Shown here piece by piece: positions 2,728 through 62,197 of a DNA stretch of 64,000 nt. How positions within the stretch are numbered: position 1 is the first letter of the stretch; each line of letters begins with the position of its first letter. Both the position numbers and the translations under genes were made by a program. A model generated the notes under the pieces. That model was given only the letters and a program-made list of their open reading frames with translations. It did not search any database and had not been told where the DNA came from. This DNA is from Armatimonadota bacterium (GTDB taxonomy: Bacteria > Armatimonadota > HRBIN16), in the NCBI GenBank assembly GCA_026003175.1, contig BPGT01000002.1, forward strand, positions 434,001-498,000. The letters are read 5' to 3'.

Positions 2728-3705
2728 GTGGCGGAGATTGTGTGCCTCGGCGAAGCGCTCATCGACATGGTCGCCCAACAGAAAGGGGTCACCATCGCGG
2801 AAGCAAAAGGCTTCTCGCCCGCTCCGGGTGGCGCACCGGCGAACGTCGCGGTGGGCGTGGCGAAACTGGGTGTACGCAGTGCGTTCCTGGGCAAAGTGGG
2901 GGCGGATCCGTTTGGATACCTGTTACGAGATACCCTCTACCAGTATGGGGTAGATGTAGGCGGGATGCGCTTTGATGAGAACGCACGCACTGCGCTGGCG
3001 TTCGTCTCGTTGACCAAGGAGGGCGTACCCGACTTCATCTTTTACCGCAATCCCAGTGCGGACATGCTTTACGAGCCGGGTGATGTGGACACGCACCGCC
3101 TGCGTCGGGCGAAGGTTTTTCACTTCGGCTCTATCTCTCTGCTGGACGAGCCGGTGCGCAGCGCGACACTGTTTGCCCTGCAGATTGCGCGAGAGAGTGG
3201 CGCACTGATTTCGTACGACCCCAATATGCGCCCCGCGCTCTGGCGCAGTGAGGAAGAGGGTAAACAGCAGATGGAAGCGGGTATGCGCTTTGCGGATGTG
3301 GTGAAGCTGAACGAGACCGAGCTGCAGTTCCTCACAGGCGTTCGTACGCCCGAGGTAGGCATCGCTCATCTTTTCACCCTGTTTCCGCAGCTGGTGCTGG
3401 TTGCGGTGACGTTGGGAGAAAAAGGTTGTTACTATGCGACGCCCCATCGAAGCGGTGCAGTTTCCGGAATACCTGTGGAGGTCGTGGAAACAGTTGGCTG
3501 TGGGGATGCGTTTGTGGCGGCGATGTTGGTGCAGCTGCGCAAGAGGGCAAAAGGACGCGAAGGGGTGCGCAACCTAAGCGACTCGGATCTGCAGCGTACG
3601 TTTCTGTACGCGAATGCTGCTGGAGCGATTACCGCCACTCGTCCCGGTGCCATCCCGGCTTTACCGACGGATGCGGAAGTGGCAGAGATGCTCCAGAAAG
3701 TGTAA
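2728..3705 (+). CDS. PfkB-family carbohydrate kinase (fructokinase-like)
   Basis: This is a cytosolic ribokinase-fold sugar kinase of 325 residues, which likely phosphorylates a hexose such as fructose with ATP. The first PfkB signature is visible near the N-terminus (GGAPANVAVGVAKLG), and the second near residue 255 (ETVGCGDAFVAAML). The usual GAGD anion hole reads GCGD here; the catalytic Asp is kept. The GTG start at 2728 is chosen because AAAGGAGGG lies 7 bases upstream and the family's N-terminus (EIVCLGEALIDM) begins right after it. It is the first gene of a rightward operon with two phosphofructokinase genes. The exact sugar cannot be read from sequence. Confidence 0.85.
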   Translation: MAEIVCLGEALIDMVAQQKGVTIAEAKGFSPAPGGAPANVAVGVAKLGVRSAFLGKVGADPFGYLLRDTLYQYGVDVGGMRFDENARTALAFVSLTKEGVPDFIFYRNPSADMLYEPGDVDTHRLRRAKVFHFGSISLLDEPVRSATLFALQIARESGALISYDPNMRPALWRSEEEGKQQMEAGMRFADVVKLNETELQFLTGVRTPEVGIAHLFTLFPQLVLVAVTLGEKGCYYATPHRSGAVSGIPVEVVETVGCGDAFVAAMLVQLRKRAKGREGVRNLSDSDLQRTFLYANAAGAITATRPGAIPALPTDAEVAEMLQKV

Positions 3706-44625: not shown

Positions 44626-47529
44626 ATGCAACGACTGACCGTGCTGAGCGTTCTGTGGTTGTGGGCATCGGCGGTTTGCCTGGCTTTTCCGCTGGACGAG
44701 CCGCCTGCGCAGATTTCGGCGGACCAGGTGCGCGAGGCGTTACAGCCCTCTCTGTTCAATAAACGGCTCAAGCCCAGCCGGATAGAGGAGTTGCTGCGTA
44801 CGCCTGCTGAAAACAAATCGCCCGCACCGCCGCAGCCTGCCAATCGTCCCACGCCGACGCCGCCACAGGAGGAGCCGAAACAGTCTACCATCACCGTGCA
44901 GCGCAAACCGGTGGAAAATGCGCGCCGCTCTAAAGACCCCTTCCGCGCCCTCTCGGAGGAGTTCAACCGCAAAATACAGCTGAGCGGCAGCAAGAAAATC
45001 GGCTTCCACATCGCCAGGGTCAGCGGCGACCGCAGCGCCTACAGCGATTCCTACTATTTTGGGCAAGGGGGACGACCGGTTACCGACTTCACCGAGCTCT
45101 CCATCATCGGCACGAAGGTGTTTGACCTGTTCAACTTCAACTGGCGTTTGACCAACACCCCCTTCGGCACCCCGCAGGACAGGCGGTTTTCTATCAACTA
45201 TGAGCGAGGGGGCACGCGCATCGACCTAGGCGACATCACCGCCGCGCTGGGTGGCAACGAGCTGGTATCGTTCAACAAGACGCTGCGCGGCATACACGTC
45301 AGCACGCGCCTGAGCCGCTCGTTCCCGATGAAGGTGAGCGGAATCTACAGCGAGACGCGCGCCACTGCCCGCACCAGCGTCATCTACGGCAACGATAGCG
45401 GTGGACCCTACTACCTGAACGCCAGCCAGATACTGGACGGCTCCGAACGGGTACGCGTAGACGGGCGCGAGATGGTGCGCGGCAAGGACTACGAGATAGA
45501 TTATTTCACCGGACTGTTGAACTTCAAAGAAGGCATCATTATCCCGCGCACCTCCACCATTGTGGTCAGCTTTGAGGCAGAAGGTTATAACGAGCCTTCC
45601 GGCAAACTGACCGGCTGGCGGGTGGAGGCACCCCTCGGCTCGCTGAATCTGGGCGTGATTGCCCTGCGTCAGGACAGTCGTTCCTCTACGGGCTTGCGCA
45701 CCAAGACCGAGCGGTTCTACGGCTACGGCAACCCGCTGTCGCCTTACGAGCTGCAGTATCCGGTGGAGCCGGGTAGTGCGGTCATCGCCACGGTGGATGG
45801 CGTGCCCCAGCAGCAGGGCACCAAGCGTGGCGAGGGCGACTTCTACGTAGACCCCGACATCCCGTACCGCGTGTACTTCAACCGTGCGATACCCGCCACC
45901 AGTATTATTAGCATCACCTACGTGCCGCGCCTCACGGGCAACGCCATGCTGGGTTCGCGGCGCGTGATGGGCTACGACCTGAACTGGCAGCTGGGCAAGC
46001 TGGGTAGTATCGGCTTCTATGCAGCACGCAGCAGCGCGCAGCGGGGTGCCAGCACGCAAGAAGGGCAGGGCAAGATGCTCAACGCCACGCTGAATCTGGG
46101 CGCTTTTCGCTGGACGACGTCGTGGCGCGATATCGACCCCGATTTCGTGACCGTGGAGAGCGTGGGCTTCCGAAGACAGGAGAAGGGCTACAGCCATACC
46201 CTCGAATACGTGGGCAGTCAACAGTTCAACGCCCGCCTGACCATTGACCGCATGCAGGTTCCCGACTATATCGGCAGTTATCTCGGAGGCTCACAGCGCA
46301 CGGGCAGCGCGTCGGTCAACAACACCTCCTTCGACGCGACGCTGAACCTGCCGAAGGCACCGCAGGTGAGGGTGTCCTGGCTCAAGCAGCGCAACCATTC
46401 GGGCAGCTACGGCTCCAGCGAAAACCAGAGCCGGAACATCAGCTTGACGCACAAGCTGGGCAGTGTATCGCTCAGTCTGGACCTGCTCAGCACCAGCGCC
46501 AGCAGCGTCAGCACCTTCACCACCGGAGGCAACACCACTACCAACACCTACGACAGCTCCAGCGATACCCTGCGCCTGACCTGGAGCTGGAGCCAGAGCG
46601 ACCGTCTGGCGTTTAACGGCGTGCTGGCGCGCGGACGTACCCGTTCATCGGGCAGCAGCAACAACGCGCAGGATATCAGCATCGGCGTGAGGTGGCTGCC
46701 GCTCAAGACGCTGAACATCAATTACCAGTATGCGGTGCGCGATTCGGGCACGATCTCCAGCACGGGCGGTTATCTGGGAGGCAATTTGGGCGGTTCGTTC
46801 ATCGGCCCGGGAGGCTACCAGTCGGGCTGGGGAGTGGGTTACGGCGCGGGAGGCAACTATAGCGGCGGCTACTACAACCCCATCACCAGTGGGCTGACAT
46901 ACTCCAGCATCGGCGTGAAGAACCGCTCGCACAACCTGACGGTCAGTTACACCCCAAACGACAACCTGTCGGTGGACGTGGGCTGGATGCAGCAGCTGAG
47001 CGCAGGAGACAACCTCACCAACACCGACATGCAGGGATTGAACTTTGGCGTGAACTACCGCCTGTCGGACAAGACCAGCGTCGCGCTGAACTACACGCGC
47101 CAGAACGTGAACTACGTGGGCGCCAGCGACGGCGCGAAGACCGACATCCTCTACTTCACCCTGCGCACCGAGCTCACGCGCAAGCTGATATTGAACCTGC
47201 AGGCGCAACGGATGAACTCCTCCAGCCTGTTCAGCTTCGGCGGCAGCGGACAGCGACAGGACCAGAAGATGCTGGCGTACTCGTTGCGGTTAGAGTATCC
47301 CTTCGCTCCCCGCCAGAGCGCGTTCCTGGAGCATCGCTTCTCGGACGTGCAGGGCTTCTTCGGCAGCGTGGACCGCGACAGTGCGCTGGGCTACGAGTAT
47401 GAAATCAACCGCTACCTGGCTTTTACGCTCAGCATCCGCCTGCAGGAGCGATCCAACCGCGACTCCCAGTATGCCAATTACAACTACAAAGCGTTTACCC
47501 TCGATGCGGACATCAGCGCACGGTTCTGA
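44626..47529 (+). CDS. Large outer-membrane beta-barrel protein
   Basis: The 967-residue protein has a signal peptide (TVLSVLWLWASAVCLAF) and a Pro-rich linker (PAPPQPANRPTPTPPQ) with basic residues. Many alternating beta strands follow from about residue 130 to the end (e.g. NFNWRLTNTPFGTPQDRRFS). The last residue is Phe after the pattern TLDADISARF, the usual C-terminal signal for BAM-dependent outer-membrane insertion. Around residue 715-760 is a Gly-rich insert (GGYLGGNLGGSFIGPGG). It supports a diderm envelope. It probably follows csaB in one transcript. Function unknown, perhaps a porin or export channel. Confidence 0.75.
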   Translation: MQRLTVLSVLWLWASAVCLAFPLDEPPAQISADQVREALQPSLFNKRLKPSRIEELLRTPAENKSPAPPQPANRPTPTPPQEEPKQSTITVQRKPVENARRSKDPFRALSEEFNRKIQLSGSKKIGFHIARVSGDRSAYSDSYYFGQGGRPVTDFTELSIIGTKVFDLFNFNWRLTNTPFGTPQDRRFSINYERGGTRIDLGDITAALGGNELVSFNKTLRGIHVSTRLSRSFPMKVSGIYSETRATARTSVIYGNDSGGPYYLNASQILDGSERVRVDGREMVRGKDYEIDYFTGLLNFKEGIIIPRTSTIVVSFEAEGYNEPSGKLTGWRVEAPLGSLNLGVIALRQDSRSSTGLRTKTERFYGYGNPLSPYELQYPVEPGSAVIATVDGVPQQQGTKRGEGDFYVDPDIPYRVYFNRAIPATSIISITYVPRLTGNAMLGSRRVMGYDLNWQLGKLGSIGFYAARSSAQRGASTQEGQGKMLNATLNLGAFRWTTSWRDIDPDFVTVESVGFRRQEKGYSHTLEYVGSQQFNARLTIDRMQVPDYIGSYLGGSQRTGSASVNNTSFDATLNLPKAPQVRVSWLKQRNHSGSYGSSENQSRNISLTHKLGSVSLSLDLLSTSASSVSTFTTGGNTTTNTYDSSSDTLRLTWSWSQSDRLAFNGVLARGRTRSSGSSNNAQDISIGVRWLPLKTLNINYQYAVRDSGTISSTGGYLGGNLGGSFIGPGGYQSGWGVGYGAGGNYSGGYYNPITSGLTYSSIGVKNRSHNLTVSYTPNDNLSVDVGWMQQLSAGDNLTNTDMQGLNFGVNYRLSDKTSVALNYTRQNVNYVGASDGAKTDILYFTLRTELTRKLILNLQAQRMNSSSLFSFGGSGQRQDQKMLAYSLRLEYPFAPRQSAFLEHRFSDVQGFFGSVDRDSALGYEYEINRYLAFTLSIRLQERSNRDSQYANYNYKAFTLDADISARF

Positions 47530-47757: not shown

Positions 47758-50244
47758 GTTACGAGCCTACCTATAAGGGATTGAAACAGTCATTGAAATT
47801 CACGAACATCGGAAGCCGGTACGTTACGAGCCTACCTATAAGGGATTGAAACCACCCCTTCGTGGGGAGAGAGCAACCAATGCGACCTTCGTTACGAGCC
47901 TACCTATAAGGGATTGAAACGCATACGGCTTCTACCGAAGCAGCCTCTACGACGCAGGTTACGAGCCTACCTATAAGGGATTGAAACCACAGTTCCAGAT
48001 GCTACTGCGGGAACATGCGGATAGTTACGAGCCTACCTATAAGGGATTGAAACGGTCCAGGCAAATTGTATACGCCATCCGGTCTGCAGGTTACGAGCCT
48101 ACCTATAAGGGATTGAAACCTCAGATTCTCCTGCTCCCGGATTCTCCTGCTCTTAGTTACGAGCCTACCTATAAGGGATTGAAACTGGTGGTCGGTACGG
48201 TGCTGGCGACACTGCCAGTCACGTTACGAGCCTACCTATAAGGGATTGAAACGCTGGGGTAGCGAAGTGTATATCGCCGATGCACCGCGTTACGAGCCTA
48301 CCTATAAGGGATTGAAACGTGAGACGCGCTGGTAATGCGAACCTCTACAACCTCGTTACGAGCCTACCTATAAGGGATTGAAACGGAGACCGCCCATACG
48401 GTGAAGTATGGTCATTGATAGTTACGAGCCTACCTATAAGGGATTGAAACATCCCTGGCAGTTGGAGGAACTCCCTCATGGTCATCGTTACGAGCCTACC
48501 TATAAGGGATTGAAACATACCATCAAAGCTTGCATCTTTGACGGAATCAGCAGTTACGAGCCTACCTATAAGGGATTGAAACCAGTACTCAGGTCTCATC
48601 TTTTGCCCTCCGTATAAAGTTACGAGCCTACCTATAAGGGATTGAAACTTGCGCATTGTGTACTTCGACCGCTTCCAGCAACGGGTTACGAGCCTACCTA
48701 TAAGGGATTGAAACTTCGATGTCCTGTTCCGTGACGCTAAGCCCCTTGTCGGTTACGAGCCTACCTATAAGGGATTGAAACTGTTGGTATCGCCTCCATC
48801 CCATGCTACGGTCAGGGTTACGAGCCTACCTATAAGGGATTGAAACATGTGTGTGAGAGTGCTTAGCCGTTCCTCCAGCCACGTTACGAGCCTACCTATA
48901 AGGGATTGAAACGTCAGAAGCCAGTTCCATGCGTCCCCACCCACGCGCAAGTTACGAGCCTACCTATAAGGGATTGAAACGCAGGGAGTCGGGTACGCGG
49001 GTGGAGTAGAACTCGGCGTTACGAGCCTACCTATAAGGGATTGAAACGGTGGGAGCAGGGCGGAGCGAAAGGTTCGTGCGGACGTTACGAGCCTACCTAT
49101 AAGGGATTGAAACGAAGAATAATTTAAAAACATATTTCTAGCAAACACAGTTACGAGCCTACCTATAAGGGATTGAAACCGAACTCCTCGTCCGGCTCTT
49201 CCAAATCGGGCTCCTCGTTACGAGCCTACCTATAAGGGATTGAAACGCAAATGGTGCAGATAGCGGTCATTGGTTGTGGCGAAGTTACGAGCCTACCTAT
49301 AAGGGATTGAAACCGACCGGCTCCACAAAGGGATTGAGTCTGGTAGCGTCGTTACGAGCCTACCTATAAAGGATTGAAACGGAAGATGATGTGTTCGGTA
49401 TCCTCACTGAATTGACGGTTACGAGCCTACCTATAAGGGATTGAAACGCGCGAGAATCTGCTTCAAGTGCCAGTTCGGAGAAGAGTTACGAGCCTACCTA
49501 TAAGGGATTGAAACGACGTGGAATTTCTCACTGATGATGAGTTGATAGAAGTTACGAGCCTACCTATAAGGGATTGAAACGACGACTACCTGCTCCAGTA
49601 TGGGCTGTTCCGGTTCGTTACGAGCCTACCTATAAGGGATTGAAACCATGATTACCAGCGCGTCTTTACTGGGGACAGGGATTGTTACGAGCCTACCTAT
49701 AAGGGATTGAAACCCAGACCGGTCACCAGCGTCCGCACCTGCTTCGGAAGTTACGAGCCTACCTATAAGGGATTGAAACGTCTGCTCCAGAAAAGCAGAC
49801 AGGGGCGGGACAATGATAGGTTACGAGCCTACCTATAAGGGATTGAAACGCTGCGAGTTCGCGCTCTCCAGTGCTGCCAGCCCGTTACGAGCCTACCTAT
49901 AAGGGATTGAAACGCAGCCCGACCGTCTCGTGGGTCGGCAGCGTGCCGGTTACGAGCCTACCTATAAGGGATTGAAACGTTTGCCGTTTTCGTAGGTAAG
50001 CATCTTCTCACCTCCGGTTACGAGCCTACCTATAAGGGATTGAAACTAACCCCAGAAGCTTCCCATGCCAAATCACCTGAGGGTTACGAGCCTACCTATA
50101 AGGGATTGAAACTAACCCCAGAAGCTTCCCATGCCAAATCACCTGAGGGTTACGAGCCTACCTATAAGGGATTGAAACTAACCCCAGAAGCTTCCCATGC
50201 CAAATCACCTGAGGGTTACGAGCCTACCTATAAGGGATTGAAAC
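47758..50244 (+). CRISPR. CRISPR array, 38 repeats of 30 bp, 37 spacers
   Basis: The repeat begins GTTACGAGCCTACC and ends TATAAGGGATTGAAAC (30 bases). Thirty-seven of the 38 copies appear identical; the copy at 49351 has TATAAAGG. Spacers are about 35-40 bases. The ATTGAAAC end gives the usual 8-base crRNA tag and, with the promoter, shows rightward transcription. The last three spacers (50047, 50113, 50179) are identical. The repeat has no strong hairpin. A type III-B operon lies 1.4 kb downstream, but no cas1, cas2 or cas6 is in the window, so processing and adaptation must come from elsewhere. Confidence 0.99.
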
Positions 50245-50348
50245 GATGATATGCTCTCCGTCTCTGCATCGTGTGGAAGCAGGTAAGCTGTCAGAACTTT
50301 TTCTGAAGATGCTGGTGTAGTACTTTGTCAGGCCTGTTTCTTAAGACA

Positions 50349-50484
50349 TTAGTGTTGTCCCAGCGATTGAAAATCGCGGGCAACAGGGGCACGAAACCTG
50401 CTTGCGCAGGTTATCAAACCCCGAAGGGGGTTTTGTGGTTGTTGCCCGCGACTTCCAGTCGCCGGGTGGTCTATAACAGTTAGA
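50349..50484. repeat. Large imperfect palindrome (REP/BIME-like)
   Basis: The left arm holds GCGATTGAAAATCGCGGGCAACA pieces (short hairpin GCGATT/AATCGC, then GCGGGCAACA). The right arm holds TGTTGCCCGCGACTTCCAGTC and ends GTGGTCTATAACA. The arms are inverted near-copies. Between them are hairpins AACCTG/CAGGTT and AACCCC/GGGGTT. The right arm recurs at 3-34. The shape is typical of REP pairs moved by REP-associated transposases. Confidence 0.6.
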
Positions 50485-50548
50485 GCACCACATGGGATGC
50501 AGTCAAAAACTGGTTCCTCATCACTCCCGCTGTGCCTGGTTGGTCAAC

Positions 50549-50640
50549 CTCACCCCCGTCCCCTCTCCTACGAGGAGAGGGGCGCAGGCGCGTATTCCCC
50601 CTTCCCTCGCAGGGAAGGGGGCAGGGGGGTTAGGTTGACG
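50549..50640. repeat. Two-hairpin palindromic repeat, one unit
   Basis: One unit of the family seen at 19411 and 35172: CCCCTCTCCTACGAGGAGAG(GGG), a spacer, then CCCCCTTCCC/GGGAAGGGGG and CAGGGGGGTTAGGTTG. Confidence 0.8.
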
Positions 50641-50680
50641 CATCCTCTCACCATCACACATACAGCCCTGGTGCACGCTG

Positions 50681-50908
50681 AGTACTTTGTCAAACGTGAA
50701 TCTTCGCTCTGATACTCTGGAGGGTGAACCACTCGGTGAGCCGAACATCACATCCACAACGGTTCGGCAGGAGCCTCGCCTTCCAGAAGGTTGAGCAGCC
50801 AGCGCAGGCTGGCTTTGTTTGCAAGGGAACGGCTCTAGCCGTGAATGCCAACACCATCGGCTCGGCAGGAGCCTCGCCCTCCAGAAGATGGAGCTTTGAC
50901 AAAGTACT
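50681..50908. mobile_element. Candidate 228-bp MITE with AGTACTTTGTCAAA ends
   Basis: AGTACTTTGTCAAA begins at 50681, and its inverted form (TGACAAAGTACT, preceded by T) ends at 50908. A third copy (AGTACTTTGTCA) lies at 50319-50330. Twelve to thirteen bases match. The interior holds two copies of the GGCTCGGCAGGAGCC repeat and no gene. It could be a non-autonomous element, or the 50319-50908 span could be a decayed insertion sequence. Confidence 0.4.
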
Positions 50909-50926
50909 GGTTGGGCAGCCGAAGCG

Positions 50927-50956
50927 GTTACAAGCCCGCCTGTAAGGGATGGGAAC
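50927..50956 (+). repeat. Isolated degenerate copy of the array repeat
   Basis: Thirty bases starting GTTACAAGCCCGCC and ending GGGATGGGAAC match the array repeat at 24 of 30 positions in the same orientation. It is about 680 bases downstream of the last array repeat, just after the candidate MITE. Confidence 0.7.
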
Positions 50957-51300: not shown

Positions 51301-51477
51301 ATGGCAAATGACCACTCTGGCGGTGCGTGCTCGTCCTGTCTGGGGTGTCTGGGCTGTCTGGTGTTGCTGGCGATACTGGTGCCGGCGATACCCGCCCTGC
51401 TGGTCGGGGGGCTGGTGTTTCTGTTTGTGCTCGGCATCCTGTCCGCCATCTGGAACCAGATGTTTAGCACTCGGTAA
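51301..51477 (+). CDS. Small Cys-rich single-pass membrane protein
   Basis: The 58-residue protein starts MANDHSGGACSSCLGCLGCL, with four Cys at spacings of three, and continues into a hydrophobic stretch (VLLAILVPAIPALLVGGLVF) and a short polar tail. AAGGAAGGTG lies upstream of the ATG at 51301; a start at 51274 is possible. The Cys could be a lipid- or metal-binding site. It lies between the array and the cmr genes on the same strand. Type III systems often have membrane accessory proteins, but a link is not shown. Confidence 0.55.
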   Translation: MANDHSGGACSSCLGCLGCLVLLAILVPAIPALLVGGLVFLFVLGILSAIWNQMFSTR

Positions 51478-51554
51478 CCACACATTTTTTCTCAAATCTG
51501 CGTGGGAATGCAGGAAACCGTTGTGCTGTGTCAAATCGACAAACAACATCTTGT

Positions 51555-51593
51555 GCTGCCGCCGTTCAGAGCGCGTGGCAGTCACCTCTTGAT
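51555..51593 (+). other. fliO-matching, spacer-sized segment beside a solitary repeat
   Basis: Thirty-nine bases match 61871-61909, inside the fliO gene, in the same plus-strand orientation. Bases 51555-51583 are identical, then mismatches occur only at 51584 and 51587. fliO is on the minus strand, so a rightward transcript here is antisense to fliO mRNA, over codons for IKWGLPRALNGGS. It ends one base before the 37-base repeat. No repeat is seen on its other side. Confidence 0.75.
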
Positions 51594-51594
51594 C

Positions 51595-51631
51595 GTTGCA
51601 TCCGTCCTAACGGACGGGTGAGGATTGAAAC
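51595..51631 (+). repeat. Solitary 37-nt CRISPR-like repeat in the cmr1 leader
   Basis: It starts GTTGCATCCGTCC and ends GGTGAGGATTGAAAC. The inner hairpin is CCGTCC (51602-51607), loop TAAC, GGACGG (51612-51617). Length, hairpin and the ATTGAAAC tag are typical of repeats processed by Cas6. It differs from the array repeat except for the last ten bases (GGATTGAAAC). The cmr1 ribosome site GGAGG follows at 51633. Confidence 0.75.
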
Positions 51632-51643
51632 CGGAGGAAGTCG

Positions 51644-52951
51644 ATGGCGCGTCCTGTGCCCAAAACGGAGGCTCCCGAATGGAAGGAGCCTGCTGCACCT
51701 GACAGCCTGACGCTGCATCTGCGCCTGATCACACCGCTGTTTGGTGGCGGCTACGAGGCGCGCGAGGTAGACCCTGTGTGTATCATCCGCCCGGCGGCTG
51801 TTCGCGGACATCTGCGCTTCTGGTGGCGTGCGCTGTACGGAGGTCAGTACGCCAGCGCGAAAGAGCTCTTTGAGGCAGAGGCGGCGATATGGGGCGCCGC
51901 AGCCACCGAGCACAAAGATTGGGCAGGCAAGGTGGGGTTGAGGGTAACCCTTATTCAAAAAGGGTGCTCTCAACCGTGTGCTTGCTTTGAATGGGATGAA
52001 CAGCGAAGGCGTTACAGGTCTATTCCTCGTTTCCGGCAGGGTTATCCACCGTATGCATTGTACCCGTTTCAGGGGGAGCTGAGTGACAAGGGTAGAACCA
52101 TCAAGCAGTCTCCAGCTACCGCTTACGAAGGGGTAGAGTTTGTGCTCATTCTGACTTTTCCTGCAGAGATTCGAGAAGAGGTGCTCTCAGCAGTTACGGC
52201 ATGGGTTCGATACGGTGGTATCGGCGCACGCACGCGACGAGGATGCGGCTCACTGGCGGTTGTTCAAACAGATATGACTCTCCGTATTGCTTCGTTCGCT
52301 GACTTCCATATGCCGAGAAATGACAGAATAGCGTTGTTACCAGGAAGCCAATATGTGCTCGGTGCACCGTGCAAGTCCGCAATAGAGGCTTGGCAACAGG
52401 CGGTGCAGGTCTACCAGACCTTTCGACAGGGACATGGTTTTGCACGAAGACCTCCTCGCGAAGGCAATCGCCCGGGGCGTTCCTTCTACCCAGAGCCCGA
52501 TAGCATTCGCCGAATGACAGGCAGATACGCTGTGGAGCATCGCCCGGAGCATCCTGTTCAGAAGGGTTTCCCTCGTGCCGACCTCGGCTTGCCTATTGTG
52601 TTCCAATTCAAGGACGATGGCGACCCACCCAACGCTGTTCTGCATAGCGCGAAGGAAAGGCATCTCAGGATGGCGTCGCCGGTTATTACCAAGCCTCTCG
52701 CTACTCAAGATGGACTTTATCGTCCGCTGGTGATGGTATTGAACGCGCCCCATGCGTGGCAGCAGGATGGCCTGGTGCTGGAAGTGGAGGGCTTCAACAA
52801 GGCTCTTCCGATTGGTGAGGAACTGGTAAACCTCTCCACAGCCGAGTTGAAGCTGATCAAGCCGCTGGCAGGCAAACCGATTCGAGACGCTCTGTTGCAG
52901 TTTGTCAGCAAACAGTGGGGCAATGCCCCGATTCAAGGGTGGAAGCCATGA
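51644..52951 (+). CDS. cmr1: Type III-B CRISPR RAMP protein Cmr1
   Basis: The 435-residue subunit sits at the crRNA 3' end of the Cmr RNA-targeting complex. RAMP features are visible: LRLITPLFGGGYEARE near the N-terminus, IRPAAVRGHLRFWWRALYGG near residues 48-67, and the Gly-rich loop GGIGARTRRGCGSL near residue 190. A second RAMP-like half follows. The ATG follows GGAGGAAG directly after a solitary CRISPR-like repeat. Its stop overlaps cmr2 (ATGA). It is first in a tight operon cmr1-2-3-4-5-6-csx1. Confidence 0.93.
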   Translation: MARPVPKTEAPEWKEPAAPDSLTLHLRLITPLFGGGYEAREVDPVCIIRPAAVRGHLRFWWRALYGGQYASAKELFEAEAAIWGAAATEHKDWAGKVGLRVTLIQKGCSQPCACFEWDEQRRRYRSIPRFRQGYPPYALYPFQGELSDKGRTIKQSPATAYEGVEFVLILTFPAEIREEVLSAVTAWVRYGGIGARTRRGCGSLAVVQTDMTLRIASFADFHMPRNDRIALLPGSQYVLGAPCKSAIEAWQQAVQVYQTFRQGHGFARRPPREGNRPGRSFYPEPDSIRRMTGRYAVEHRPEHPVQKGFPRADLGLPIVFQFKDDGDPPNAVLHSAKERHLRMASPVITKPLATQDGLYRPLVMVLNAPHAWQQDGLVLEVEGFNKALPIGEELVNLSTAELKLIKPLAGKPIRDALLQFVSKQWGNAPIQGWKP

Positions 52952-54612
52952 CCTACCTCCTCTCCATCTCCATCGGTCCCGTGCAGGAGTTCATCGCGGC
53001 AGCGAGGCGCACTGCCGACCTGCGCGCGGGTTCGCAACTGCTTCAGCAGCTCGCCGGGCACATCGCGGCGCAGATTACTCAACAGGGGGGCACGCTCATC
53101 TTCCCGGCCAGCGCGGACGTGCCCGGACCCAACAAGGTGGTGGCGCAAATCGATACCGACCAGCCGTCCGAGATGGTTAGCATGCTCAAAGAGAGTGCAA
53201 CAGAGTGGCTGTGGCAACAGTGGCAGCGGGTGCGTGAGCGATTGAAGGCGGAGGGCGTGCTGGTAAACGACCAGCTGGCGCAGGAGCAGATTGCTGCCTT
53301 TCTGGAGTTCTACGCGGCGTGGGTTCCCCTCCATGGGGATTACTCCGCGGCACGCCAGAGGGTGGAACTGCTGCTGGCAGGGCGCAAAGTACTGCGCGAT
53401 TTCGCCCAGCCGTCTTCTGTGCATGGCAACCCCAAAAGCCCGCTCGACCCCTCACGCGACTGCGTTATCATATTGAACCGAAAAGGCTCCTGGTATCAGG
53501 TGCCCGACAACGCCCAGCAGTCGCCTTCGCTACGCTTCAAAAAGACCGAGTTTCTAGACGCCATCTCCCTGCTGAAGCGAGGGCAGGAGGCGCGAGATGT
53601 CCCCTCCACCTCCCTCTTAGCGGCAAGGTCGGTTCTGCCGATTGCCGAGAAGCGCGTGCCCGATGCGGTGGAGACACTACGTGCTGCGGTGCGCGATACG
53701 CACGGGCTGGTGGACATGGGTGACCTGATGTTCCCCGCCCGGCTGCAGGAGGAGGCTTCCGCCCATCCGGTGCTGCAGCAACAGCGAGAACAGATCGAAG
53801 AGGCGCGACGGAAAATCCTCAGGAGCGCAGGAGTGTCCGAGTGTCCACCCTACTACGCTGTGCTGGTAGCGGATGGCGACCGCATGGGCAGGCTGATCGG
53901 CATGCAGAACACGGTGGACAAACACCGTGCCCTCTCGCAGGCGATGGCGGGGGTAGCCCGGCAGATGAGCGAAGCCATCCAGCAGCGCGATGGTTACTGC
54001 GTGTACGCGGGAGGTGACGATGTGCTGGCTCTGTTGCCGGTAAACCGCGCTCTGGAGTGCGCCGTGCAACTGGCTCACCTCTTCCGCAAAGCAATAAGTT
54101 TCTTCGTCACCAGCGAGGATGCCGGAGGCACGCTCTCTGTGGGGGTGGCGATAGCGCATCACCTGGAGTCCCTGCAGAGAACATTACAGTGGGCGCGCGA
54201 GGCGGAAAAGCTTGCGAAGAGGCAGCGCAACGCGCTGGGGCTGGCTCTACACCTGCGCGGTGGCGCACCGCTGGAGGTGGCTACCTCATGGCAAAAAGAC
54301 CCTTATCTGGAGAGCTGGATGGTGTGGATATCGGCGTTCCGCCAGGGGCTTTCTCATGGCTTTCCCTACGAGCTGCTCCATCTGGCGCGCGAGGCAGAGG
54401 GCTGCCATCTGAATGCAGAAACCCTTCGTGGGGAGGCACGACGCATTTTGAACCGTAAGCAGGGCAGGGAGGCGAAGGGGGGCATGGAGCCTTTTCGTCA
54501 GCAGATGGAAGCGGAGCTGGAGAAAATCCACAACGTCCACGACCTGGAAGCGCTGGCGCACCGTCTGATCATCGCGCGCTTCCTCTCACGCTACCCGGAG
54601 GTGGACGTATGA
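52948..54612 (+). CDS. cmr2: Cas10/Cmr2, cyclic-oligoadenylate synthase subunit without HD domain
   Basis: The 554-residue large subunit of the Cmr complex is expected to make cyclic oligoadenylate when target RNA is bound. The N-terminus is SIGPVQEFIAAARRTADLRAG, the Cmr2 start. The first Palm domain has LVADGDRMGRLIG near residue 310 and the active GGDD is at residues 355-358 (VYAGGDDVLAL). A Cys ligand region for zinc is not clear. The N-terminal HD nuclease domain of longer Cas10 proteins is missing, so target DNA cutting is unlikely. Starts and stops overlap neighbours by four bases. Confidence 0.93.
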   Translation: MTYLLSISIGPVQEFIAAARRTADLRAGSQLLQQLAGHIAAQITQQGGTLIFPASADVPGPNKVVAQIDTDQPSEMVSMLKESATEWLWQQWQRVRERLKAEGVLVNDQLAQEQIAAFLEFYAAWVPLHGDYSAARQRVELLLAGRKVLRDFAQPSSVHGNPKSPLDPSRDCVIILNRKGSWYQVPDNAQQSPSLRFKKTEFLDAISLLKRGQEARDVPSTSLLAARSVLPIAEKRVPDAVETLRAAVRDTHGLVDMGDLMFPARLQEEASAHPVLQQQREQIEEARRKILRSAGVSECPPYYAVLVADGDRMGRLIGMQNTVDKHRALSQAMAGVARQMSEAIQQRDGYCVYAGGDDVLALLPVNRALECAVQLAHLFRKAISFFVTSEDAGGTLSVGVAIAHHLESLQRTLQWAREAEKLAKRQRNALGLALHLRGGAPLEVATSWQKDPYLESWMVWISAFRQGLSHGFPYELLHLAREAEGCHLNAETLRGEARRILNRKQGREAKGGMEPFRQQMEAELEKIHNVHDLEALAHRLIIARFLSRYPEVDV

Positions 54613-55754
54613 ACGAACAGGTCGTACGTATCCGTGCCATAGACCCCCTGCTCTTCCGGGATGGACGCCCGTTCGGGGCGGATATCGGTTCACTGCTGGC
54701 GCAGACGTTACCCCTCCCCTACCCATCCACGCTCGCGGGCTTCGTGCGCACCTTCGCCGGCAACCGCTGGGGAGTGGACTGGGCAGACGAGGCGTCTGTG
54801 CAGCGCGTGCTGAATATCCACGTTCGGGGTCCGTTGCTGATGCGTAATGACAAACACGTCTTTCGCGCCCCGGCGGATGCGGTCGTCTGGGAGCAGGGGG
54901 AGAAGAAGCAGGTCGGCTTGACCTCCCTCCGCCCCCAGCCTGTGCAGCCTGGCGAAGGCAGCAACCTGCCGCCGGGTATCCTGCCTCTGCTGCCACAGAA
55001 GTATATCGAAGGCAAACCGTCGGAAGGCTATGACCTGTGGACATGGGATACCCTTTCTCAGTGGCTTGCCGACCCAACGGGCGATGCGACTTCCTCTCCC
55101 GAGAAGATAGGGTGGCTGGAAGTGGAAGAGCGCGTGCATGTGGCGATTGAGGATGACAAGGGTACCAGCAAGGAGGAGCTCTTGTTCACCGTACAGTTTC
55201 TCTCCTTTGAACGCTATCGCTGGGAAGGGCAAGCGCAGCGCGAGCAGTGGGCTTTGCTCGTGCGAGTGACTGCGGACGAGCCTGTGTCTCTGCAGGGGGT
55301 TGGCTTGCTGGGCGGCGAGAAGCGGTTGGCTGCAGTGGAAGCGGTGGATAACTCCCGCTGGCTTGGCTGTCCACCGGAACTAGGGCAGGCTCTGCGCGGC
55401 GCAAGCAGGATAAGGCTGTTTCTGGCTACCCCGGCTATCTTCAGCGGCGGATGGAAACCCGGCTGGCTGGATGCAAACCTCACAGGTTCTCCACCTTTTG
55501 CACCAAACCTGAAACTACAACTGGTGTCCGCCGCCGTGAGGAGGCATGAGGCGGTGAGCGGGTGGGACTATCGCGAAGACCATCGGTGCCCGAAGGCGGT
55601 GCGCTGGCTGGCTCCTGCAGGCTCAGTGTACTTCTTCCAGGTGCTGGAAGGTGAACCAGAGTTGCTTGCCACAGAGGCGTGGCTCCAATCCGTCTGTGAT
55701 GACCTGCAAGACCAGCGCGACGGCTACGGGCTGGCACTCTGGGGAATTTGGTAA
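54609..55754 (+). CDS. cmr3: Type III-B CRISPR protein Cmr3
   Basis: The 381-residue RAMP-type subunit binds the 5' tag of the crRNA next to Cmr2. The N-terminus has the family pattern VVRIRAIDPLLFRDGRPFG, then LPYPSTLAGFVRTFAGNRWG. A Gly-rich loop is in the C-terminal third (GVGLLGGEKRLAAVE). A four-base overlap joins it to cmr2; cmr4 follows after 15 bases with its own GGAGGAAAGGG site. Length is normal. Confidence 0.92.
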   Translation: MNEQVVRIRAIDPLLFRDGRPFGADIGSLLAQTLPLPYPSTLAGFVRTFAGNRWGVDWADEASVQRVLNIHVRGPLLMRNDKHVFRAPADAVVWEQGEKKQVGLTSLRPQPVQPGEGSNLPPGILPLLPQKYIEGKPSEGYDLWTWDTLSQWLADPTGDATSSPEKIGWLEVEERVHVAIEDDKGTSKEELLFTVQFLSFERYRWEGQAQREQWALLVRVTADEPVSLQGVGLLGGEKRLAAVEAVDNSRWLGCPPELGQALRGASRIRLFLATPAIFSGGWKPGWLDANLTGSPPFAPNLKLQLVSAAVRRHEAVSGWDYREDHRCPKAVRWLAPAGSVYFFQVLEGEPELLATEAWLQSVCDDLQDQRDGYGLALWGIW

Positions 55755-55769
55755 TTGGGAGGAAAGGGA

Positions 55770-56621
55770 ATGAGTGACCGAGTGAAAGCGATTTACCTGC
55801 ACGCCCTCACGCCGGTGCATTCCGGCACAGGGCAGGCGGTGGCGGTGGTAGACCTGCCCATCGCCCGCGAGAAGGCGACCGGCTGGCCCATCATCCCTGC
55901 CAGCAGCCTCAAAGGGGTGTTGCGCGATGCCCTCAGCAACGACAACAACAAGGGATGGATAGACCTCGCCTTCGGGAAGGACGTGCGCAGCGAGGAGCAG
56001 GGCGAAGCGGGTGTGTTCTGCTTCACCGACCAGCGCATCCTGTGCCTGCCGGTGCGCAGCTATTTCGGCACTTTCGCCTACGCCACCTGTCCACTGGTGC
56101 TCCAGCGGCTGGTACGAGACATGAGAGCGTTCGGAGTGCAACCGCTGTTCGATGCGGTGCCTGCAGGCGCGGAAGGCATGAACGCACTGGTGACCAAAGG
56201 TTCCACTCTGGCGAAGGGGGGCAAGCTCTATCTGGAGGACCTGGACCTCTCTGCGAAGGAGGACGAACAAACCCAGAAGATAGCCAACGCGCTGGCTGGC
56301 AAGCTCTTTACGGAGAATCCGCGCTCCTTTACCGAGCGGTTTGTCATCGTCTCCGATGAGGTGTTCAACTTCCTGTGCGAAACGGCGATGGAGGTGGCAG
56401 CACGCATCCGCCTGAAAGACGAGACGAAGACGGTGGAAACCGGCGCACTGTGGTACGAGGAGGCGGTGCCCGCGGAGAGCCTGTTCAGCGGCGCGGTGTT
56501 GATAGCCGACCACTACCGTCGGGAGCCGACCGATCTATGGAACAAGTTTCAGCCGAGCCTGATACAGCTTGGAGGCAACTCCACCGTCGGGCGAGGCTTG
56601 TGTCGGGTGGTGATCGCATGA
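55770..56621 (+). CDS. cmr4: Type III-B CRISPR backbone RNase subunit Cmr4
   Basis: The 283-residue subunit forms the repeated backbone along the crRNA and cuts target RNA every six bases. The catalytic Asp is D28 in TGQAVAVVDLPIARE. SSLKGVLRDAL (helix after the thumb region) and the C-terminal GGNSTVGRGLCRV Gly-rich loop are typical. The ATG at 55770 is used because GGAGGAAAGG precedes it. It overlaps cmr5 by four bases. Confidence 0.94.
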   Translation: MSDRVKAIYLHALTPVHSGTGQAVAVVDLPIAREKATGWPIIPASSLKGVLRDALSNDNNKGWIDLAFGKDVRSEEQGEAGVFCFTDQRILCLPVRSYFGTFAYATCPLVLQRLVRDMRAFGVQPLFDAVPAGAEGMNALVTKGSTLAKGGKLYLEDLDLSAKEDEQTQKIANALAGKLFTENPRSFTERFVIVSDEVFNFLCETAMEVAARIRLKDETKTVETGALWYEEAVPAESLFSGAVLIADHYRREPTDLWNKFQPSLIQLGGNSTVGRGLCRVVIA

Positions 56622-57019
56622 AAACGCGAGCGCAACAGGATATGGAGCTGGCGGCAAAGCTGGTGCAGGAAGTGGCAGACCTCGACAAGGAGACTTACAA
56701 GGAGACTCAACAGATTTATGGAAGTTTGTGTCACTCCTTCCCCGTGATGGTACGCACCTGCGGGCTGTGCCAGGCGATAGCCTTTTCTCAAGCGAAAGCG
56801 GGCGAGGGGAAGGATGCGCGCGAGAAGGCGCATGAGCTGCTGCTGAAGCACGTGCGGAAGGTGCTGGGTGTGCAGGGTGACCTGTTGCAGGTGCTCCGCG
56901 AAGCCTCCGCCAGCGACTATATGCTGTACACGCGACGGGTGCTTTCGGCATGGGTGTATTTTAAACGCTTCGCCGAGTCCATTCTCAAAGTATCCAGCGG
57001 TCAACAGGGGAGTAAGTGA
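56618..57019 (+). CDS. cmr5: Type III-B CRISPR small subunit Cmr5
   Basis: The 133-residue, mostly helical protein begins MKTRAQQDMELAAKLVQEV and matches Cmr5 in size and place. Cmr5 subunits bind along the target RNA opposite the Cmr4 backbone. Four-base overlap (ATGA) with cmr4; its stop shares one base with the cmr6 start (TGATG). Nothing unusual is seen. Confidence 0.9.
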   Translation: MKTRAQQDMELAAKLVQEVADLDKETYKETQQIYGSLCHSFPVMVRTCGLCQAIAFSQAKAGEGKDAREKAHELLLKHVRKVLGVQGDLLQVLREASASDYMLYTRRVLSAWVYFKRFAESILKVSSGQQGSK

Positions 57020-58097
57020 TGGAAGTCAAGGCAATCCGAAAGCCTCTGGAAAGTCTGCAAGGCGGGCAACACGTAGGGCTGATGCTCCATCGCTACCTCG
57101 CCCAACATGACGATACCCATGAGGGCGCGAAGCAGCTGTACGAGCAGGCTCAGCAGACACCTGTTCCCGAGGTGTGTACCGTCTGGCTTTCCATCGATGG
57201 CAGCAGGCGCTACAACAGTTGCCTCACATGCGCCATTTTGTCGCCACTGCCGTTTCGCCCATCGCCGTCGGGCTGGGCAACGAAAGCGTGCTGGAGGTGG
57301 GGCTGGCGATTCATCACACCTACGGTGTGCCCATCATCCCCGGTTCGGCTCTGAAAGGCTTGTGCCGACGCGGCGCGCTGCGCCTGAGACAGGAAGGCAA
57401 ACTATCCGAAGACGCCTTCCGGGTGCTCTTTGGCTACTCCGAACAAAGCGGCGAGGCGTCCGCTGGATACATCACCTTCTGGGACGCCTGGTACGACCCC
57501 GATTCAGTGGAAGGTACACCCTTCCATCGCGATGTGGTGACGGTGCATCATCCTGATTATTACGGCGGCGGGAAAGCGTTTCCCACTGACTTCGACGACC
57601 CCAACCCCGTGCCGTTTCTGGTGGTCAAGCCGGGGGCGCGCTTCCTGTTCGCCCTGCAGGCACCCGATGAGCAGTGGGGAGCGTTTGCCCAGAAGCTGCT
57701 GGAGTGGTGCTTGCAGAATCTGGGGGTGGGTGCGAAGACGAACGCGGGATACGGGTTCCTCGTAGCGGGCAAGCAGCCAGAAAAATCTCCTTCTGGTGGC
57801 ACAACCGCTGTCGCTGAAAAGGCTCGGTCGACGCAGCCCGCGACCAACCGCGAACTCTGGCAGGGTGTGACGGTGGTGTACAACCCCTCCCAGCGCAACC
57901 TGCAGGTGCAGAGACAGAACCAGGGCAGGACAGAAGGCGCATCCGCGGACGAGGCGAGAACAAAATTGCTGCTGGCAGCATTGCCCGAATCCGCTCGCAA
58001 CCAGCTCACTCAGGGCAAACGCCGACTGCTGGCAGACGTGGAGGTAGAGGTCAGCGGCAATCGCAAGTTCATCGTCAAGATTACCCCAAAGGAGTGA
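57019..58097 (+). pseudogene. cmr6: Cmr6 RAMP protein, frame broken at a GTGTGT run; C-terminal extension
   Basis: The N-terminal frame (MEVKAIRKPLESLQGGQHVG...TPVPEV) and the main frame (YRLAFHRWQQALQQLPHMRH...) join if two bases are removed from GTGTGT at 57172-57177. The span is a multiple of three plus two. The main frame has the RAMP features PIIPGSALKGLCRRGAL and LGVGAKTNAGYGFLV. About 105 further residues follow, with a variable linker and an OB-like stretch (VTVVYNPSQRNLQVQ ... KRRLLADVEVEVSGNRKF). A start within the main frame (GTG 57174) could make a 307-residue form. Real loss would remove the 3' cap of the complex. Confidence 0.85.
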
Positions 58098-58102
58098 AGG
58101 GG

Positions 58103-59317
58103 ATGAAGCTGCTCACCTTCCTAGGCACGACCCCCTATTGGAAGACCGACTATGTCTGGAGCGATAAGCGGTGCGAAACCGAATTCATCGCGGAGGCGAT
58201 AGCGAGCTGGTTACACCTACAGGATATCGTTGTGTTTCTTACTGAGAAAGCAGAGCAGAGCGGGAACTGGAAACAGCTGCAAGAACGACTGCAAGGACGG
58301 GCACGTGCCGTGCGTATCCCTGACGGCAGGACTGAGCAAGAGATATGGGAGATATTTGAAAAAGTGGTTGGGCAGGTTCATCAGCACGATGTGGTGGTTC
58401 TGGATGTGACTCATGCGTTTCGCTCCCTGCCGATGCTTTTGACCGTTGCTGCAGCTTTCCTCCGTGCGGTGCGCGAGGTGCGGGTAGAGCATATCTTCTA
58501 TGCACCCAGCGAACGAGAGCAACGAGAATCTACGGTGATGGATCTCATCTTGCTGCTGCACTGGATGGACTGGATGGAAGCGGTTCGACGCTTTAGAGAA
58601 ACGGGTGACGCGCGATGGATTGGAGACACACTGACCCAAACCCATGACACTCTACGCGCTACTGCGACGGGCGAACCCAGAAGCCTGAAGAAGGCAGGTA
58701 AGGAATTGGGAAATCTGGCTCAAGCCCTTCATCTGGCGCGTCCTATAGAGGTCGCTCAAGTTGCTACGAGACTAAGAGCTATCTTGCCCGAGGCGTCGCA
58801 AGAGGTGACGAAGTGGGTGAAGCCCTTTAGCCTGCTTGTGGACAAGGTCACTCAACAAACTTCCCAGCTTTCCTACGAGCAACCACAGACATTGAATCGC
58901 AACAATCTGCAAACGCAGTTAGACCTCATCCACCAGCTGTTGCAATACGGTTTAACCATGCAAGCGGTCCAGGCGGCGCGCGAGTGGCTGATCAACTGGG
59001 CAATCTGGTACAAAGCAGGCAGAGGCTCTCTGCAAAAGGATGATTGGCTATCTGACAAATCGCGTAATAGCGCTGAAAACGACCTGAACAGTGCCTTTCG
59101 TCCAGATGCAAACAAAGCGGTTGTGCCAGAGTGGCTCCGTGAACCCGAGCTGCACAAGGTGCTACAACAGCTGTGGCCTGGCTTGTGCAACCTGCGCAAC
59201 GACATTGCGCACTGCGGGATGCGCTTACAACCCCTCTGCGCAAAGGACTTACAGGGTCAGAGCGAGGAGTACCTCCGCATGTTGGAAGAAGTGATGAACC
59301 TTAGTAATCCAGAGTGA
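58103..59317 (+). CDS. csx1: Csx1/TM1812-type CARF-HEPN ribonuclease
   Basis: The 404-residue effector is expected to bind cyclic oligoadenylate from Cmr2 through an N-terminal CARF domain and then cut RNA. CARF signals are LLTFLGTTPYWKTDYVW at the start and DVTHAFRSLPMLLTVAAAFL near residue 110. The C-terminal HEPN motif is RNDIAH, with R365 and H370 as catalytic residues. The ATG 58103 is preferred because AAAGGAG is eight bases upstream; GTG 58094 overlapping the cmr6 stop is possible. It is the only visible signalling effector in the operon. Confidence 0.9.
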   Translation: MKLLTFLGTTPYWKTDYVWSDKRCETEFIAEAIASWLHLQDIVVFLTEKAEQSGNWKQLQERLQGRARAVRIPDGRTEQEIWEIFEKVVGQVHQHDVVVLDVTHAFRSLPMLLTVAAAFLRAVREVRVEHIFYAPSEREQRESTVMDLILLLHWMDWMEAVRRFRETGDARWIGDTLTQTHDTLRATATGEPRSLKKAGKELGNLAQALHLARPIEVAQVATRLRAILPEASQEVTKWVKPFSLLVDKVTQQTSQLSYEQPQTLNRNNLQTQLDLIHQLLQYGLTMQAVQAAREWLINWAIWYKAGRGSLQKDDWLSDKSRNSAENDLNSAFRPDANKAVVPEWLREPELHKVLQQLWPGLCNLRNDIAHCGMRLQPLCAKDLQGQSEEYLRMLEEVMNLSNPE

Positions 59318-61534: not shown

Positions 61535-62197
61535 TTACAGAGACAGCCTTTCGTGAGCCTGTCGCAGGCGTTGCCGAAAGTCACGGATCGCCTGCCGGGC
61601 ATCCTCTGCCTCATCGCCCAGCGTGGGGTCCGGCGTAAAGGGCTTGGACCGCGCAAGCATCTTATCGAAGGTAGATGCGGTGTCCGGTTGCTCGGTCAGG
61701 TCCATGAGCAGGTTCACCTGCTGTGCGGAGGAGCCTATCAGCAGGGTTCTGCCTCGCACGGTGATGAGATGCACCGCGCCTGCCCCCAGAAAGCGCGTGT
61801 CCAGCACGGTGATGGTTCCTTCGTTCTGAGGGGGTGTAAGGCGGGTGAGCCACTGCGCAACCTGTCCCTTGCTGCCGCCGTTCAGAGCGCGTGGCAGTCC
61901 CCACTTGATAAGAGCCAGCGCGACCATCAGCCCAATTAGCCACCGCCATGCTTGGCTTGCGGGAGAGCCGACCGGCTCAGGCAGGGTTTCGCGCCGGAGG
62001 GCATCCCAGCCCTCACGAGAGCTCTGCACTGATCTGTTATCCTGCAGTGCCGCCGGTGTCGTGGGCACGGGCGGCGAGGGGCGATGCAGACTAGGAGCGC
62101 CGGAGGCTGGCGGCGAGAAGGCGGACGTGGGCGGTGAAGCCGTTGCCTGCATCGCCGCCAGCGCGCAGAGCATGAACACGAAAGCAGCCTTCCTCAT
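61535..62197 (-). CDS. fliO: Flagellar biosynthesis protein FliO
   Basis: The 220-residue protein has a signal peptide-like start (AAFVFMLCALAAMQATA), a Pro-rich linker and one membrane helix (WRWLIGLMVALALIKWGLP). A cytoplasmic FliO domain follows (GTITVLDTRFLGAGAVHLIT and LLIGSSAQQVNLL). FliO helps assemble FliP in the flagellar export gate. It is the last gene of the leftward run fliM-fliN/Y-fliO, with ATGA overlap to fliN/Y. The 39 bases just after the helix codons match a segment upstream of cmr1. fliP is not in the next bases. Confidence 0.85.
   Translation of the reverse strand: MRKAAFVFMLCALAAMQATASPPTSAFSPPASGAPSLHRPSPPVPTTPAALQDNRSVQSSREGWDALRRETLPEPVGSPASQAWRWLIGLMVALALIKWGLPRALNGGSKGQVAQWLTRLTPPQNEGTITVLDTRFLGAGAVHLITVRGRTLLIGSSAQQVNLLMDLTEQPDTASTFDKMLARSKPFTPDPTLGDEAEDARQAIRDFRQRLRQAHERLSL

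What the first reader, a model, noticed from the sequence alone, without database searches (positions are those of the whole stretch)
51554..51631. fliO-antisense, spacer-sized segment fused to a solitary CRISPR-like repeat upstream of cmr1
Bases 51555-51593 match 61871-61909 inside fliO at 37 of 39 positions, with 29 in a row. Such a match is not expected by chance in 64 kb. The segment has spacer length and ends one base before a 37-nt repeat with a crRNA-type hairpin. fliO is on the other strand, so a rightward transcript could pair with fliO mRNA. This suggests a crRNA-like regulator of flagellar export, comparable in idea to known repurposed mini-CRISPR RNAs, or a decayed self-targeting array. 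The lack of a second repeat on the 5' side argues against a normal crRNA.
Basis: partly seen in the sequence, partly recalled or inferred. Interest (0 to 1): 0.85.

Follow-up and report, generated by a model that had tools for sequence, protein, structure and literature searches.

The report
Stray CRISPR spacer-repeat unit before cmr1
A 78-base scrap of CRISPR (one repeat plus a spacer-like copy of part of the bacterium's own flagellar gene fliO) has been inserted just before a defence operon in this one lineage; it is most likely a stranded relic rather than a working regulator of flagella.

Summary
51554-51593 matches 61870-61909 inside fliO at 38 of 40 bases (30 in a row; expected by chance 0), and it is the only such match in the 4.1-Mb genome. 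The 37-nt element is a genuine CRISPR repeat: genus relatives carry long arrays of it (33/37 identical), next to type I-C cas operons in two of them. This genome lacks those arrays and the I-C Cas5c and Cas8c genes. Three relatives (G004, G009, G001) have cmr1 with a short leader and no block, so the 78-bp [fliO copy + C + repeat] is a derived insertion in this lineage that replaced roughly 15 native bases. The fliO copy matches this genome's own fliO (38/40) better than any relative's (34/40 at best), so it is self-derived and recent. There is no 5' repeat, no cognate effector or processing enzyme, no canonical I-C PAM and no conservation, so a crRNA-type regulator of fliO is not supported. 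Best reading: a stranded self-derived spacer-repeat unit of a lost I-C array, now a hairpin in the cmr1 5' leader. How it moved there is unexplained, and at 40-41 nt the spacer is longer than all 74 spacers counted in relatives' arrays (33-38).

The parts
51554..51593 (+). fliO-derived, spacer-like segment; + strand is antisense to fliO mRNA
   Evidence: 38/40 to 61870-61909, 30 exact; absent from the cmr1 leader of relatives
51594..51594 (+). single C between the fliO match and the repeat (spacer of 40 or 41 nt)
   Evidence: sequence
51595..51631 (+). solitary 37-nt CRISPR repeat, 33/37 to the genus I-C-type repeat GTTGCACCCGTCCTTCGGGACGGGTGAGGATTGAAAC; hairpin with stem CCGTCC-GGACGG and loop TAAC kept
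   Evidence: unique in own genome and within 3 mismatches in 291 genomes of the phylum; arrays in relatives; fold -15.7 kcal/mol
61870..61909 (+). source/protospacer inside fliO (fliO on the minus strand, nt 289-328 of the ORF)
61535..62197 (-). fliO
   Evidence: Pfam PF04347 FliO, E 7e-7; neighbours FliN- and FliM-family genes
51644..52951 (+). cmr1; its start codon lies 12 nt after the repeat
   Evidence: PADLOC Cmr1 E 4e-29
52915..59317 (+). rest of the III-B module: cmr2/cas10, cmr3, cmr4, cmr5, cmr6 and a Csx1-type CARF-HEPN gene
51301..51477 (+). 58-aa small membrane-protein ORF upstream of the block, at the same place in G004 (88% identical)
47758..50244 (+). type I-B array, 38 copies of the 30-nt repeat GTTACGAGCCTACCTATAAGGGATTGAAAC (a different repeat)

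Best explanation
The block 51554-51631 is a stranded CRISPR spacer-repeat unit. A piece of the cell's own fliO was captured as a spacer (or spacer-like piece) beside a type I-C-type repeat. One spacer plus its 3' repeat was then placed, in this lineage only, in the 5' leader of cmr1, replacing about 15 native bases. The I-C arrays and effector genes are no longer in the genome. As it stands it cannot give a normal crRNA against fliO: there is no repeat on its 5' side to supply the 5' handle, and no I-C Cas5c to cut the hairpin. Its only likely present effect is passive: a 9-pair hairpin (one pair a wobble) ending 12 nt before the cmr1 Shine-Dalgarno sequence. Shown: the match, the identity of the repeat, the empty site in relatives, self-derivation, absence of cognate genes and arrays. 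Inferred: that the fliO piece was once a spacer, the route of insertion, and the lack of function.
For: The repeat is array-type in G001, G002, G005 and G007, period about 72, and in G005 and G002 lies beside a Cas8c-Cas5c I-C operon. The own genome has no other copy, no Cas8c or Cas5c and one Cas1, of the I-B locus with 30-nt repeats. Empty site: cmr1 leaders of G004 and G009 align on both sides of the block without it, and G004, G009 and G001 share a CTGTCTG-GGAGGA type sequence where own has the block. The spacer equals own fliO at 38/40; relatives' fliO at most 34/40; the two differences are found only in the copy. G004 keeps another truncated 37-nt repeat beside a leader-like sequence, so loss of these arrays leaving remnants is seen elsewhere in the genus.
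Against: The fliO match (40 nt) is longer than any of 74 spacers in the relatives' arrays of this repeat (33-38). No mechanism for moving exactly one spacer plus one repeat is demonstrated; canonical or off-target Cas1-Cas2 integration would leave a target copy on both sides, and the left side is native sequence. None of 35 distinct spacers in the window's I-B array matches the own chromosome outside arrays, so self-derived spacers are not common here.
Confidence: 0.62

Rival explanations
1. Composite templated insertion: a break in the cmr1 leader was repaired by copying a nearby fliO piece (10 kb away) and, separately, a CRISPR repeat, so the fliO piece was never a spacer.
For: Segment longer than the usual spacers; loss of about 15 native bases at the site; source only 10 kb away and in the same orientation.
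Against: The two pieces abut with one base between, just as spacer and repeat do; the repeat keeps both precise ends; no other copy of the repeat remains in the genome to copy from.
Confidence: 0.18
2. 5'-leader control element of cmr: the repeat hairpin is cut or bound by a Cas protein (I-B Cas6 or Cmr) and tunes cmr expression; the fliO match is a passenger.
For: Position 12 nt before the start codon; hairpin intact despite loop changes; ectopic repeats near cas genes are known to regulate (PMC9458426, PMC8730458).
Against: Absent from the cmr1 leader of all six relatives with cmr1; no cognate Cas5c; the only processing enzyme seen is Cas6b of the 30-nt-repeat I-B locus.
Confidence: 0.12
3. 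RNA regulator of fliO: the cmr leader RNA pairs with fliO mRNA (as antisense RNA, or as a guide for the RNA-targeting Cmr complex) and lowers fliO expression.
For: Antisense orientation; 40-nt duplex, -79.9 kcal/mol; an RNA-targeting III-B module directly downstream.
Against: Pairing is in one genome only; no 5' handle; inner codons 97-110 of fliO rather than its start; no sigma-70-like promoter found nearby, though that scan is weak.
Confidence: 0.06

Closest known systems
Type I-C CRISPR array unit (spacer + repeat)
   Same: Repeat sequence, hairpin and the GGATTGAAAC end; spacer-repeat order
   Different: Single repeat, no 5' repeat, no leader, no I-C cas genes in the genome, spacer 40-41 nt
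Solitary repeat units / RNA anti-CRISPRs (Racrs; PMC10651486)
   Same: Single CRISPR repeat outside an array
   Different: Lies in a host cas operon leader, not in a phage or plasmid; carries a self-derived segment; host lacks the matching subtype
CreTA and other ectopic-repeat guides (PMC9458426)
   Same: Degenerate ectopic repeat beside cas genes with a spacer-like segment matching the host's own DNA
   Different: CreA in most cases has two repeats, with the guide between them; here one repeat, on the wrong side for a 5' handle, and near-full pairing
scaRNA of type II systems (described in PMC8730458)
   Same: Diverged repeat next to cas genes plus a segment complementary to a host transcript
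   Different: No sign of Cas9 or tracrRNA in the cas loci read here; no conservation
Self-targeting spacers
   Same: Near-perfect match to the host chromosome
   Different: Outside an array; upstream trinucleotide CCT (or CTT), not the TTC reported for an I-C system (PMC8406640)

Membership tests
CRISPR repeat (type I-C family of this genus) | Sequence and hairpin shared with repeats of real arrays | tested here: met
   33/37 to arrays in G001, G002, G007; stem kept
CRISPR repeat (type I-C family of this genus) | Part of an array with two or more repeats | tested here: not met
   Only copy in the genome
Functional type I-C crRNA unit | Cas5c and Cas8c present | tested here: not met
   No match in own genome; found in G002, G003, G005
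Functional type I-C crRNA unit | Spacer flanked by repeats on both sides | tested here: not met
   Left flank is native leader, aligned to G004
Functional type I-C crRNA unit | Spacer length within the range of the arrays | tested here: not met
   40-41 against 33-38, n = 74
Self-targeting spacer | Near-identity to own chromosome beyond chance | tested here: met
   38/40, E 1.7e-11 in the genome
Conserved CRISPR-derived regulator (CreA, scaRNA type) | Element and pairing conserved in relatives | tested here: not met
   Absent from six other cmr1 leaders; no other genome of 291 in the phylum has the repeat within 3 mismatches
Conserved CRISPR-derived regulator (CreA, scaRNA type) | Expressed as a discrete small RNA | not testable with these tools
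   No expression data
Off-target Cas1-Cas2 integration product | Target-site copies on both sides of the new spacer | tested here: not met
   Left 37 nt align with native G004 leader, not with the repeat

The most novel reading that the evidence does not exclude
A freshly born ectopic spacer-repeat unit has turned the leader of the cmr mRNA into an antisense RNA (or Cmr guide) against fliO, coupling CRISPR defence expression to reduced flagellar export in this one lineage.
Probability: 0.05. Interest if true: 0.75.

Novelty: new member of a known kind. Interest (0 to 1): 0.33.

Why it matters
Ectopic CRISPR repeats are the raw material of CreTA, scaRNAs and RNA anti-CRISPRs, and how they leave their arrays is poorly known. 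Here an insertion can be polarised against empty sites in relatives and placed after the split from them by its self-derived spacer, so it is a possible early stage of such an element. It is also a caution: a striking self-match beside cas genes need not be a regulator.

Tried and rejected
Considered the segment as a dispersed repeat: rejected, two sites only. Considered a viral or plasmid source: no match in viral contigs, phages or plasmids. Searched for a donor array with the same repeat variant: none in genome contigs or the phylum. Considered a relic of an ancestral array at this very spot: disfavoured by the empty leaders of G004, G009 and G001; in G007 the 37-nt array lies upstream of a small ORF, not between it and cmr1. 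Considered insertion of a reverse-transcribed processed crRNA: rejected, the handle is at the 3' end and nothing like it is at the 5' end. First took the PF10040 Cas6 as the enzyme for the 37-nt repeats; dropped when in G001 it proved to sit beside a III-A Cas10. An apparent self-match of one I-B spacer at C2:1025094 turned out to be another I-B array. The search for related loci with Cmr1 found nothing in genome contigs.

Full report
Observation. The window holds two copies of a 40-base sequence: 51554-51593 just before cmr1 and 61870-61909 inside fliO. They are identical at 38 of 40 positions and over the first 30. Shuffled sequence never gives such a match, and in the 4.1-Mb genome these are the only two significant sites. 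One base after the first copy comes GTTGCATCCGTCCTAACGGACGGGTGAGGATTGAAAC (51595-51631), which occurs once in the genome. fliO is on the minus strand, so + strand RNA of the segment would be antisense to codons 97-110.

The repeat is real. Searching the phylum gave arrays of nearly the same 37-nt repeat in the same genus (G001, G002, G005, G007), canonical GTTGCACCCGTCC-TTCG-GGACGGGTGAGGATTGAAAC, period about 72. The solitary copy differs at four positions, three of them in the hairpin loop; the stem is kept, with one C-G pair turned into a U-G wobble. In G005 the array follows Cas3-Cas5c-Cas8c-Cas7c and the acquisition genes, a type I-C operon, directly downstream of the gene homologous to window 44626-47529; in G002 the same gene, Cas5c, Cas8c, Cas1 and the array lie in the same order. 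In the window that gene is followed instead by an array of another repeat (30 nt), of the type I-B system at G000:C7, and then by the III-B cmr module. The genome has one Cas1, the I-B one, and no I-C Cas8c or Cas5c. The solitary repeat is thus an orphan of a system that this genome, as assembled (97% complete), does not have.

It is an insertion. Seven of ten genomes of the genus have cmr1. Own and G004 align from the small upstream ORF into cmr1, except that own has the 78-base block where G004 has about 15 bases. G009 lacks it too, and G004, G009 and G001 share a CTGTCTG-GGAGGA type sequence before cmr1, which fixes the direction: gain in own (inference from three relatives). G002, G005 and G007 have more diverged leaders, also without the block. 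In G007 a 37-nt array does lie upstream of cmr1, but before a small ORF and not at this spot.

The fliO part is self-derived and recent. Against the fliO genes of the genus, the segment is closest to own fliO (38/40), then G003 and G004 (34/40). The two differences from own fliO are found in no relative with an alignable site; there the site is conserved, so the changes are in the copy.

Function. A normal crRNA needs the 5' handle from a repeat upstream; none is present. The cognate cutting enzyme and effector are missing (that Cas5c does the cutting in type I-C is established knowledge, not tested here). The trinucleotide before the fliO site is CCT (or CTT if the spacer starts one base later), not the TTC reported for an I-C system (PMC8406640, abstract). 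The element is not conserved. A 40-bp RNA duplex with fliO mRNA is physically strong (-79.9 kcal/mol), and the III-B complex acts on RNA, so a one-lineage antisense effect cannot be excluded; nothing supports it beyond orientation. A passive effect of the hairpin on cmr1 translation is possible and untested.

Weak points. The fliO match is longer than all 74 spacers seen in relatives' arrays of this repeat, so it may be spacer plus repair tract, or not a spacer at all. No event that moves exactly one spacer and one repeat has been shown; simple off-target spacer integration predicts target copies on both sides, which are absent. The block rests on one genome per species.

Comparison. The literature describes ectopic repeats outside arrays as a class that includes CreTA and scaRNA, with degeneration as a common feature (PMC9458426; PMC8730458), and solitary repeats on phages and plasmids, some of which inhibit host CRISPR (PMC10651486). 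This element shares the solitary repeat and the location near cas genes but fails the tests that define a working guide.

Noticed in passing
L033, about 3020-3056 (G001:C50): A spacer in a 30-nt-repeat array of G001 is TCGGGACGGGTGAGGATTGAAACGACATCAGAACTTC: the 3' part of the 37-nt repeat plus 14 nt that follow it. One CRISPR system has taken a spacer from an array of the other.
   Followed up: no
L021, about 1495-1530 (G004:C4, near 177,648): G004 keeps a solitary truncated 37-nt repeat (GTTGCACCCGTCCTTCGGGACGGGTGAG) beside a leader-like sequence, another remnant of a lost array.
   Followed up: partly
L042:1411-2028 (G004:C3): In G004 the N-terminal part of cmr1 runs into the C-terminal part of cmr6, with csx1 kept: cmr1 to cmr6 apparently deleted.
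   Followed up: no
window 51301-51477: 58-aa Cys- and Leu-rich, probably membrane-bound small protein upstream of cmr1; 88% identical in G004, and small membrane-like ORFs without clear similarity at the same place in G007 and G002.
   Followed up: partly
window 50927-50956 and 50245-50926: Degenerate 30-nt repeat (GTTACAAGCCCGCCTGTAAGGGATGGGAAC) about 680 nt past the end of the array; in G004 a similar degenerate copy is within one spacer of the array end, so own has an extra stretch there with inverted repeats (50681-50705 / 50884-50908).
   Followed up: no
window 50047-50214: The last three spacers of the I-B array before the final repeat are identical (TAACCCCAGAAGCTTCCC...), a recent duplication of units.
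   Followed up: no
window 48649-48684 and G000:C2:1025094-1025129 (L077): The window's I-B array and a third I-B array in the genome share a spacer (35/36), as if two arrays had sampled the same target or exchanged units.
   Followed up: partly
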